In this document: in pieces, positions 29,187 to 32,199 of the stretch | Numbering within the stretch: the first letter of the stretch is position 1 | How the letters are laid out: each line of letters opens with the position of its first letter | Source of the DNA: Candidatus Moraniibacteriota bacterium | Lineage (GTDB): Bacteria > Patescibacteriota > Minisyncoccia > Moranbacterales > GCA-2747515 | Direction of reading: 5' to 3' | DNA: 32,215 bases | NCBI GenBank assembly: GCA_020428995.1 | Contig: JAGQLW010000011.1 | Location: forward strand, 1 to 32,215 | Translations under genes and position numbers: made by a program | Notes under the pieces: generated by a model | Seen by the model: only the letters and a program-made list of their open reading frames with translations | Told to the model about the DNA's origin: nothing | The model's database searches: none

Positions 29187-29642
29187 TCAGAGAATTTTTA
29201 CAATATTAGAAATACTTTTTTCGGGTTCTTTTTTGATATTATGTTCCCATAATCTAATTACTGGCTAACCTTGCGAACGGAGTTGGCGAGTAACTTTTTT
29301 GTCACGTTTTCGATTTCTTTCAATTTTTTCTCTTCAAAAATCATTTTTTAATAAATGTTTCCACCTTGGATATTGCCAGCCGTGCCAAAAGTCACTATAC
29401 AAGAAAAACGCAAACTTTTTGCTTCCTAAAAACAATGTCAGGTTTTCCGAAAACTAAACGAACATTTAGTTCAAATTTCTTTCTCGTGACTTTTTTGATT
29501 TCCAAAATAAAATCTTTTTCAAATTGAGTACCCGTCGAACGAATTTTTGACATTCTTTCTGAACGATCTGCTTGCGAAAGTTTATCATTGAATCGTTTTT
29601 TCTTGAAATTTCTTTTTGCGTAATTTGTGGTTTTTTCCTCAT
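29187..29642 (-). pseudogene. vsr: Decayed Vsr (very short patch repair) endonuclease
   Basis: Vsr nicks T:G mismatches left by deamination of 5-methylcytosine and is a usual companion of cytosine-5 methyltransferases. The family signature is easy to read across frames: ADRSERMSKIRSTGTQFEKD, FGKPDIVF (active-site Asp), SDFWHGWQYPRWKHLLKNDF, then REKIERNRKRDKK and PVIRLWEHNIKKEP. Four lesions interrupt it: a base missing in the A-run complementary to 29596-29601, an extra base near 29397-29400, a TGA at 29336-29334 and a TAG at 29267-29265. Both stops fall where the family has Trp (NDFW, GW). The total length (456 bases) equals 151 codons plus stop, so the indels cancel. The start overlaps the upstream gene by ATGA. 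Confidence 0.88.
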
Positions 29643-30069
29643 AGCCCTGCCTCGAACACGTCAGAAGCAGAACTTTCAAGATTATTTGTGGATTTTTCGT
29701 CGAGTAGTTTTTTCCATTGTTTGATTCTGTCACCTTCAATCTCATCAATGCGCCAATAATTTAAAAGGGTGTCTTCATTGATGTTTTTAATTTGATTTTG
29801 TATTGCCTTCGCCCGAGAAAATAAATGAAAAAAGATTTTAGGAACAGTAACGCTCTTTCCTTTCATGTTTATTTTTTCTTGCCCGCCAGCCGTAAAAGTA
29901 TCTCGTAAATTTGCGGACACGGCGTTGTACTCCGTTATCAAATAAGCTGCGGCTCTTTCGAATTTTGTCGTGCTTGATCCAAACATTTCAGGAAATAGAA
30001 TCATGCAGTCAGCGCAAAAATCCCAAGCGTAAGCTCGAGAATAGCTTCATCAAAATTACACTCTAACAT
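29639..30069 (-). pseudogene. Unknown protein of the restriction operon, frameshifted
   Basis: I do not recognise this family. The intact part (ATG 30004 to TGA 29639) is 121 aa and begins MILFPEMFGSSTTKFERAAA. The frame extends upstream as SYSRAYAWDFCADC, and a start at ATG 30069 reads MLECNFDEA in another frame, so one base is missing near 30043. Restored, the protein would be about 143 aa. It starts three bases after the Mrr-like gene's stop and its TGA overlaps the vsr ATG, so all three were co-translated. Two cysteines (CADC) and a helical, charged C-terminal half are visible. An accessory or specificity role in the restriction system is a guess from context. Confidence 0.65.
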
Positions 30070-30072
30070 TTT

Positions 30073-31067
30073 TCAATGAATTGGAAATTTTTCGTCTACG
30101 ATAACCTTAGATAAACGAAAGCCGTCAATTAGAGCTATAGGATTTTTACCTTCTTCGTTTGCTTCATTTAACGCTGCTTTCGAAAAATGACTTGTTGTAA
30201 TAACGACTCCTTTAGAAAACGGCTGTAAACTGCCACGTAATTCTGCTACTTCTTTTCTTCCGACGGAGTGCAGCCAGCGCTTTGCCTGCACCTGCACAAA
30301 AGTATTTTCAAAAATCCACATACGCCCGCTTGTCTTAGCATTTACGTCAACACCGCCATCAGCGCTGTATTTGGTAACGCAAACTTCCATAAAGTCAGTA
30401 TGAACTAATAAATCCTTAATAAAAAACTCAAACTTCTTTGGATCCATGATAAGCAATTTCCCCCGAACTTGCTCAATTTGCTCAAGATTTTCAACCAGCT
30501 CTTGTTCGCTTTCATTGACAATTTCATCGTCGCTTACAATATTATGCTTTCTTGATTCGGCGAGTATTTGATTAGAAATGTTAGTGTCTAACGATAGTGG
30601 GATAATTTGTGGGTCTTGATGAATTTTGAATTCAAAAATCCAAACTTTTCTAACCTTACCACCCGAGTCAAGTTGAGTGTCAGGATAATAACGCAGATAT
30701 TCAAGCAATCCGATATACTTCCAACGTCTTGGTCCGACAGTTTTATCTCGACGACTAGCAACTAAGACAAAACCGTGAATTGGAAAGTTTAAATCTTTTT
30801 GATCAATTACGCGCTTGTTTACGCCTGCAAGCGTCTGCTCTCCAATCTTACCAGCCGCTGTGTAAGTTAAAATATCGTTTTCAAGTCTATCGTAATATGG
30901 GTTTTCGCCAGTAATATGAAAATCTTGAATTGAGGTCATTATTGCTACTCTCGCAACCACTCTTTATCTTGAATTGAAAGACGAATACCGCCAGCATTCG
31001 CCACCTTAAGCGTTTTGAAAATTTCCTCGTTTGAATATAATTTTCCTATTTCAAATTCCTTAATCAT
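30073..31067 (-). pseudogene. SRA-like + Mrr-type restriction endonuclease, frameshifted
   Basis: The larger open part (295 aa to the TGA at 30073) has two domains. The N-terminal one (ENDILTYTAAGKIGEQ, GVNKR, NFPIHGF, WKYIGLLEY) resembles the SRA/YDG-type modified-base reader fold. The C-terminal one is an Mrr-like nuclease: FEFFIKDLL, GGVDVNAKTSG with Asp205, VQVQAKRW with Gln225 and Lys227, then ELRGSLQPFSKGVVITTSHFS. The start at 30960 is not natural. A preceding frame from ATG 31067 reads MIKEFEIGKLYSNEEIFKTL and VANAGGIRLS, then shifts near 30961-30965 by one missing base. Restored length is about 331 aa. Such proteins cut modified DNA, or serve as the nuclease of a type II system with the adjacent methyltransferase. 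Confidence 0.78.
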
Positions 31068-31224
31068 ATGTTTTCATGATGTTGATTGCTTCTTGTAACT
31101 TCTTCGTTGCTTCATCATATTTTTGTTGCAATTCCTCATCATCAAGCGTTTCGTATTCTTGCGTAAGCAACGCCAAAGCCGTTTTCATAGCATAAATTAT
31201 AATTTGTGCTTCTTCCTTTTTCAT
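31060..31224 (-). CDS. Small 54-aa helical protein in the restriction operon
   Basis: This is an intact reading frame: ATG 31224, overlapping the methyltransferase stop by ATGA, to TAA 31060, overlapping the ATG of the Mrr-like gene. The product (MKKEEAQIIIYAMKTALALL, then TQEYETLDDEELQQKYDEAT...) is almost entirely alpha-helical and amphipathic, suggesting a coiled-coil or dimerising small protein. No family was recognised. Overlaps on both sides show it is translated with its neighbours. It is the only undamaged gene of the operon. Confidence 0.65.
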   Translation of the reverse strand: MKKEEAQIIIYAMKTALALLTQEYETLDDEELQQKYDEATKKLQEAINIMKTYD

Positions 31225-31684
31225 ATTGTTTGTATTGCTTTATTATTGTTAATCGTAAGAAGACCTTTCACGTTTTCCGCCACGAATAACACGGGCCTAG
31301 TCCTACGAATAACTTCCGCCATACTCTGGTATAGAAGTCCTTTTTCGCTATTAAAGCCTCTACGTTTTCCAGCGTGACTGAACTCTTGGCATGGAAAACC
31401 ACCGAGAACAATGTCAGCTTTTTTTGGAAGTGGTACATCAAACATCGCATTGTGCTTGTCGTCTAAAATATCGACAATACTACCGCAAACAATATCGTGT
31501 TTAAAATAGTTTTTGAACGTTTTGCACGCTGGTTCGTCTATATCGTTTACCCAATTTATTGCGAACGGATTTTTGTGGTATTTTTTACCATTTGATTCAA
31601 ACCCGCCAATAAAACCGAGATCTAAACCACCACAACCAGCAAAAAGGGAAACAATCGAGAATTTGTCTTTAGTATTTTTTTCAT
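31221..31684 (-). pseudogene. Cytosine-5 DNA methyltransferase, N-terminal half, damaged
   Basis: C5 methyltransferase motifs are clear: motif I SIVSLFAGCGGLDLGF, motif IV GGFPCQEFSHAGKRRGF with the catalytic Cys of PCQ, and motif VI FVAENVKGLL. Restoring one A in the A7 run after ATG 31684 gives MKKNTKDKFSIVSLF in frame, 154 aa, with Cys99 and Glu137. As it stands the ATG frame stops after 20 codons and the motif frame has no start codon. The protein also ends right after motif VI: target recognition domain and motifs VIII-X are absent. It cannot be an active methyltransferase alone. The stop overlaps the 54-aa gene. Confidence 0.85.
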
Positions 31685-31686
31685 AA

Positions 31687-32199
31687 AAATTATTTCAAAA
31701 GTTCGCCACTATTCACTCCCAACGCGCTGATTGTCATAAAGTCGCGCAAACACTGACTTCTTTTGGAAAAAATCATCAAGGGCGGCACTATGGTTTTAAG
31801 CTTCACGCAACAACAAACAGTTATGGACACTTGTGTTCATTGTGGTTTTCTGGTGCACATTTCTACGATGCACAAGCACTACCGTTTCTTGTGAACGAGA
31901 GTATTGACATGCTTGTCGGAGACACACTCTACGGTGCTTCCGTGATGAGAAAAAAGACGCATAATCTCTTTGGAATAAAAATTATCTCTCCACCATGGCC
32001 GAAGCAGAACAAAAAAGTCGCTACGCCATTTCAGAATTTTCTTCTCTCTGAACGTTCACGCATTGAGAGTGTTTTTGGTATCTTGAAACAACAGCTTCAT
32101 ATTGTAACGTCCTTTCCCAGATCGATTAGAAGATGCTTTGTTCATTACATGCGTACACTTCTTGGGTATCAGGTTTGTGCGTTAATGCGCGGAAAGTAG
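31687..32199 (+). mobile_element. IS982-like transposase, 5'-truncated
   Basis: The open frame from 31687 to TAG 32197-32199 (170 codons) lacks a proper start. It reads HSQRADCHKVAQTL, GRHYGFKLHATTNSYG, DAQALPFLVNES, DMLVGDTLYGASV (second DDE aspartate), ISPPWPKQNKK and ERSRIESVFGILKQQ (catalytic Glu), ending SFPRSIRRCFVHYMRTLLGY. This pattern fits the C-terminal two-thirds of a DDE transposase of the IS982 group. The N-terminal region with the first aspartate is missing. The left boundary lies next to the methyltransferase ATG (31684), so the element was either cut by a rearrangement or inserted as a partial copy. The IS family assignment is moderate. The DDE transposase call is firm. Confidence 0.75.

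What the first reader, a model, noticed from the sequence alone, without database searches (positions are those of the whole stretch)
29639..30069. Unrecognised ~143-aa family between the nuclease and Vsr
Tight coupling on both sides shows this gene belongs to the restriction system, yet it matches no family I know. With the 54-aa gene it points to a five-gene C5 methyltransferase - small protein - SRA/Mrr nuclease - unknown - Vsr cassette that may be an undescribed restriction system type.
Basis: partly seen in the sequence, partly recalled or inferred. Interest (0 to 1): 0.6.

Follow-up and report, generated by a model that had tools for sequence, protein, structure and literature searches.

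The report
Tail of a broken restriction enzyme
The supposed new small protein is the leftover C-terminal third of an ordinary Type II restriction enzyme whose methyltransferase and repair partner are also broken, so it is a gene fossil and not part of a new defence system.

Summary
The ORF at 29639–30004 (−) is real, but the "~143-aa family" is not. The 121-aa ORF aligns at about 60% identity to residues ~218–345 of ~346-aa Type II restriction endonucleases (PADLOC REase_II). The first 22 residues are a different reading frame belonging to foreign DNA.

In intact relatives the order is C5 methyltransferase – REase – (often) Vsr, with the PD-(D/E)XK catalytic half present. Of 91 relatives fetched, 89 have an adjacent C5 methyltransferase, 33 have Vsr, and none has the window's Mrr-type nuclease or 54-aa gene.

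In the window, ~1.2 kb carrying the 54-aa gene, the nuclease and a 22-codon scrap replaces the last 170 codons of the methyltransferase and the first 217 of the REase. The genome holds neither missing part elsewhere. Vsr carries two frameshifts and two nonsense codons. The predicted fold of an intact relative is EcoRV/SwaI-like in its N-half; the window keeps only the C-terminal helical domain.

What the spliced-in nuclease does, and whether it still works, was not established.

The parts
31218..31670 (-). C5 DNA-cytosine methyltransferase, N-terminal part only (residues 2-153 of 323), with a frame break at the A-run of the start codon
   Evidence: 73% identity to L044 methyltransferase residues 2-153, homology stops at 31218; Pfam DNA_methylase E=3e-21 for the 74-aa ORF; rest of the gene absent from the genome
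30023..31217 (-). foreign ~1.2 kb segment in the hole left by the methyltransferase C-terminus and REase N-terminus
   Evidence: bounded by the ends of methyltransferase and REase homology; none of its genes in 91 related loci
31060..31224 (-). 54-aa ORF, part of the foreign segment; overlaps the nuclease start (31067)
   Evidence: no family hit above chance; no convincing relatives in 57 related genomes (best E=0.005)
30073..31067 (-). Mrr_cat nuclease with an N-terminal domain that may be SRA-like, one frameshift near codon 40; part of the foreign segment
   Evidence: Pfam Mrr_cat E=1e-21; PADLOC PDC-S02 / mREase_IV; relatives G185 C2 (43%, full length) and own paralogue on contig C77
30004..30069 (-). 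22-codon ORF MLECNFDEAILELTLGIFALTA*, probably the start of the next gene of the foreign segment, cut at the junction; its stop lies in REase DNA read out of frame
   Evidence: no relative in any locus
29642..30022 (-). C-terminal domain (about residues 218-345 of 346) of a Type II restriction endonuclease; catalytic PD-(D/E)XK half missing
   Evidence: full-length relatives match PADLOC REase_II at 2e-44 and 1e-48
29190..29637 (-). [quoted passage not shown]
   Evidence: Pfam Vsr E=1e-8; two-frame tblastn alignment to intact L044 Vsr; sequences

Best explanation
The ORF is the C-terminal third of a Type II restriction endonuclease left behind in a dead restriction-modification locus of ordinary make-up: C5 methyltransferase, REase, Vsr. 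Shown: homology, gene order in intact relatives, the missing N-terminal parts, and the lesions. Inferred from the enzyme family and fold: in intact relatives the methyltransferase protects one recognition sequence with 5-methylcytosine, the REase (N-terminal EcoRV-type PD-(D/E)XK core plus C-terminal helical domain) cuts unmethylated copies in incoming DNA, and Vsr repairs T:G mismatches left by 5mC deamination. In this genome a ~1.2 kb piece of another defence operon (54-aa gene, possibly SRA-like/Mrr nuclease, start of a third gene) replaced the methyltransferase C-terminus and the REase catalytic half. Vsr then, or beforehand, decayed. The fragment therefore has no catalytic function. It may or may not still be translated.
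For: (1) tblastn of the fragment finds 62% identity over residues 22-144 of the query in G183 and 44% in G068, each inside a ~350-aa open frame. Those frames lie in the order methyltransferase-REase-Vsr. (2) The full-length relatives match PADLOC REase_II (2e-44, 1e-48) and carry an invariant FPD...G(V/I)E(V/L)K motif upstream of the fragment region. (3) 91 related loci: C5 methyltransferase in 89, Vsr in 33, window nuclease 0, 54-aa gene 0; PD..(x)ExK pattern in 90. (4) The own genome has methyltransferase homology only to the N-part and REase homology only to residues 218-345. (5) Junctions at 31218 and ~30022 are colinear with the intact locus. (6) Vsr has two frameshifts and TGG-to-TGA/TAG, while valS (894 aa), tsaD (362 aa) and most of the window are open. 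(7) Model of an intact relative: pLDDT 86, residues 12-183 match EcoRV at Z 11.1, 3.5 A over 151 residues, and SwaI at Z 10.8, 5.9 A over 184 residues. (8) Searches with the C-terminal part alone found it only in frames of ~350 aa, apart from one at a contig end (226 aa open).
Against: The 121-aa fragment keeps an open frame and all six invariant residues of its domain, which could mean retention. However, at the observed ~6 point lesions in ~630 flanking codons, about 1.2 would be expected in 127 codons, so none at all is unremarkable (~0.3; my arithmetic). The assembly is a 91-contig draft, so single frameshifts at A-runs could be sequencing errors. The two junctions and the nonsense codons could not be checked on reads.
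Confidence: 0.94

Rival explanations
1. One reading: a genuine five-gene restriction system in which the 143-aa protein is an accessory or specificity factor of the SRA/Mrr nuclease.
For: Gene order and tight spacing in the window; the fragment has no Pfam family.
Against: 0 of 91 related loci carry the nuclease or 54-aa gene; the fragment is the tail of a 346-aa REase; the methyltransferase ends at residue 153 of 323 and Vsr has stops; the nuclease's full-length relative stands without a methyltransferase.
Confidence: 0.01
2. In-place replacement of one defence by another: a modification-dependent (MspJI/AspBHI-like, 5mC-sensing) nuclease cassette landed in the methyltransferase and REase. 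Loss of the 5mC methyltransferase was favoured because such a nuclease would cut the host's own methylated DNA. The nuclease is, or was, functional, and the flanking fragments are bystanders. (An extension of the best explanation rather than its opposite.)
For: Mrr_cat domain with its core motif in the window copy (alignment); weak AspBHI hits (Pfam RE_AspBHI_N E=0.005 for the G185 relative; PDB 4oc8 E=0.015 with a profile); the MspJI family is an N-terminal SRA-like plus C-terminal Mrr-cat design that needs m5C (PMC3874153), and incompatible methyltransferases provoke Mrr-dependent DNA damage (same paper).
Against: The nuclease copy itself has a frameshift near codon 40, so it may be dead; 5mC dependence is not shown; order of events unknown.
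Confidence: 0.12
3. Assembly artefact: two loci joined wrongly, with the intact methyltransferase-REase-Vsr operon present in the cell.
For: Draft genome of 91 contigs, contig end at 32215 beside a transposase.
Against: Both junctions keep the order and strand of the intact locus, which a random chimera would not give; missing parts are found nowhere else in the genome; Vsr is broken by point lesions independent of any junction.
Confidence: 0.05

Closest known systems
Type II restriction endonucleases matching PADLOC profile PDLC03508 (REase_II), beside C5 methyltransferases
   Same: The fragment is ~60% identical to the C-terminal third of members such as L043/L044; full-length relatives match this profile; same gene neighbourhood.
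   Different: Catalytic N-terminal two thirds missing here; therefore a remnant, not a working member.
C5 methyltransferase, REase and Vsr loci (e.g. Klebsiella plasmid pINF177.2; E. coli chromosomes)
   Same: REase, cytosine methyltransferase and very short patch repair endonuclease together.
   Different: Those are intact; in the window methyltransferase, REase and Vsr are all broken and a foreign piece sits inside.
NgoAXIII remnant of Neisseria gonorrhoeae (PMC6789123)
   Same: VSR gene next to a truncated methyltransferase described as a remnant of an incomplete restriction-modification system.
   Different: There the VSR may still work; here Vsr is also broken and part of the REase survives.
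MspJI/AspBHI family modification-dependent nucleases (for the inserted nuclease, not the finding)
   Same: Mrr_cat C-terminal domain and possibly an SRA-like N-terminal domain.
   Different: Similarity to AspBHI is weak; no test of 5mC dependence; the window copy is frameshifted.

Membership tests
Type II REase family PDLC03508 (C5 methyltransferase partner) | sequence homology over the shared region | tested here: met
   60-62% identity over ~125 residues, E=5e-46
Type II REase family PDLC03508 (C5 methyltransferase partner) | PD-(D/E)XK catalytic core in the N-terminal half | tested here: not met
   Residues 1-217 absent from the locus and the genome; so it is a remnant, not a functional member
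Type II REase family PDLC03508 (C5 methyltransferase partner) | adjacent C5 methyltransferase | tested here: met
   Only an N-terminal fragment (2-153 of 323) remains; adjacent in 89 of 91 relatives
Type II REase family PDLC03508 (C5 methyltransferase partner) | EcoRV-like fold of the catalytic half | tested here: inconclusive
   Predicted for an intact relative (Z 11.1 to EcoRV, 10.8 to SwaI); the region is not present in the window
Type II REase family PDLC03508 (C5 methyltransferase partner) | cleavage of a specific sequence blocked by 5mC | not testable with these tools
   recognition sequence unknown
Vsr endonuclease | intact Vsr domain next to a C5 methyltransferase | tested here: not met
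   domain recognisable (E=1e-8) but two frameshifts and two nonsense codons
undescribed five-gene restriction system | same gene order in independent genomes | tested here: not met
   0 of 91 related loci have the nuclease or 54-aa gene
MspJI/AspBHI-like modification-dependent nuclease (inserted gene) | Mrr_cat domain plus N-terminal SRA-like domain | tested here: inconclusive
   Mrr_cat clear; SRA-like part only a sub-threshold RE_AspBHI_N hit in the G185 relative

The most novel reading that the evidence does not exclude
A modification-dependent nuclease cassette replaced the heart of a 5mC restriction-modification operon in place, its arrival and the loss of the 5mC methyltransferase being linked because the two are incompatible, so that the locus records a switch from one mode of restriction to the opposite one.
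Probability: 0.12. Interest if true: 0.35.

Novelty: new member of a known kind. Interest (0 to 1): 0.1.

Why it matters
It removes a false lead: a frame-restored fusion of a foreign scrap and the tail of a decayed REase can pass for a new protein family and a new system type. It also shows that short orphan ORFs between defence genes should first be tested as fragments of longer enzymes. One small positive: the C-terminal domain of this REase family (confident model, no Pfam family, no convincing match among solved structures) is a candidate for a first structure, using an intact relative.

Tried and rejected
A new 143-aa family: rejected, because relatives carry it as the C-terminal part of ~350-aa frames.

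A five-gene system: rejected by gene order in 91 loci.

The 22-residue start as part of the protein: rejected, no relative shares it and it is in another frame.

Missing parts on another contig: rejected.

Target-site duplications or inverted repeats at the junctions: only 6-7 base direct matches, none informative.

The 54-aa gene: only one weak, partial match in 57 related genomes. The nuclease: no relatives in viral contigs.

Known fold for the C-terminal domain: predicted alone (pLDDT 94); no Foldseek match with E below 0.67, best VIA-align Z 2.5.

DraIII: weak Pfam hits only (0.0034; best 0.00022, in 2 of 29 members); not followed.

Recognition sequence: no named relative with known specificity was found. 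The first genome-contig query alignment (A1) had no usable conserved stretch. Two literature searches for Vsr/R-M combinations gave nothing or little.

Full report
What is in the sequence. On the − strand the window holds, from 31.7 kb downwards, a C5 methyltransferase piece, a 54-aa ORF, an Mrr-type nuclease, the ORF in question and Vsr. The reported "143 aa" comes from joining two frames: a 22-codon ORF (30069–30004, MLECNFDEAILELTLGIFALTA, then TGA) and a 121-aa ORF (30004–29639).

What the 121-aa ORF is. A tblastn search of 287 genomes of the same phylum found two relatives, E = 5e-46 and 1e-28, and both lie at the C-terminus of open frames of about 350 aa. In both genomes that frame stands directly between a C5 methyltransferase and Vsr. 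The full-length proteins match the PADLOC profile REase_II at 2e-44 and 1e-48. Aligned with plasmid-borne relatives they show an invariant FPD...G(V/I)E(V/L)K motif in the N-terminal part, the signature of PD-(D/E)XK nucleases. The window ORF covers residues ~218–345 of 346 at 60% identity and so lacks the whole catalytic part.

How general the arrangement is. A scan of one genome per species for ~85,000 species, plus viral contigs, gave 91 loci with a relative (the genome list was cut at the best 80). A C5 methyltransferase lies next to it in 89, Vsr is nearby in 33, and the window's nuclease or 54-aa gene in none; 90 of 91 show the PD-(D/E)XK pattern and 83 of the 89 methyltransferases are on the same strand. 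This scan was seeded with N-terminal motifs, so it cannot show whether the C-terminal part ever stands alone. Searches with the C-terminal part itself found it only in ~350-aa frames or, once, at a contig end. Annotated records with the same trio exist, e.g. a Klebsiella plasmid and E. coli chromosomes (15 genomes with a match).

What happened in this genome. Methyltransferase homology runs from residue 2 to 153 of 323 and stops at 31218. REase homology resumes at residue 218 at ~30022. Thus about 1,165 nt (170 + 217 codons) are missing and 1,195 nt of other DNA lie in the gap. The missing parts are nowhere else in the genome. Vsr is recognisable but has a frame break at its start, a frameshift at ~29402 and two Trp codons turned into TGA and TAG. 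The methyltransferase start is out of frame at an A-run, and the nuclease has one frameshift. The rest of the window carries long uninterrupted genes, among them valS and tsaD (named from my own reading of the sequence), so the damage is local. With about six point lesions in ~630 codons around it, the absence of a lesion in the 127-codon fragment is no sign of retention.

Structure. The model of an intact relative (pLDDT 86) has an N-terminal half that matches EcoRV (Z 11.1, 3.5 A, 151 residues) and SwaI (Z 10.8, 5.9 A, 184 residues), with HincII further down. Sequence identity is ~10%, so this supports a shared nuclease fold, not close kinship. The C-terminal domain, predicted from the window sequence with 28 relatives, is confident (pLDDT 94) and has no convincing match among solved structures. 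Its role in intact enzymes (DNA recognition or dimerisation) is inference only.

The inserted piece. Mrr_cat is clear. The N-terminal domain may be SRA-like: the full-length relative in G185 gives a sub-threshold RE_AspBHI_N hit and a profile gives AspBHI at E = 0.015. Known MspJI-family enzymes have this architecture and need 5mC (PMC3874153). The relative in G185 is not beside a methyltransferase, and this genome has a second, contig-end copy on C77. A link between gaining such a nuclease and losing the 5mC methyltransferase is possible but unproven.

Precedent. A VSR gene next to a truncated methyltransferase, described as a remnant, is known from Neisseria gonorrhoeae (NgoAXIII; PMC6789123).

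Verdict. The best explanation is a pseudogene fragment of a Type II REase in a dead methyltransferase–REase–Vsr locus interrupted by another defence gene. Low interest.

Noticed in passing
window 30073-31067: Mrr_cat nuclease with a possibly SRA-like N-terminal domain (PADLOC candidate PDC-S02); one frameshift near codon 40. A paralogue (43% identical) sits at the end of contig C77 of the same genome (L026:3901-4614) and an unbroken relative in G185 (L023:4906-5919).
   Followed up: partly
window 31831-32199 (+): C-terminal part of a DDE transposase (Pfam DDE_Tnp_1_3, below cut-off) at the contig end, next to the dead restriction locus; probably why the contig breaks there.
   Followed up: no
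L043:4664-5038 and relatives (alignment A4): The C-terminal ~125-aa domain of this REase family gives a confident model (pLDDT 94) but has no Pfam family and no convincing match among solved structures.
   Followed up: yes
window 29260-29345: Both Vsr nonsense codons are TGG to TGA or TAG, i.e. G-to-A on the coding strand.
   Followed up: no
L051:4001-4813: A second broken REase copy (frame ends at 271 aa) in the MAG CG10_46_32, where methyltransferase and Vsr homology are present; decay of this locus may be recurrent.
   Followed up: no
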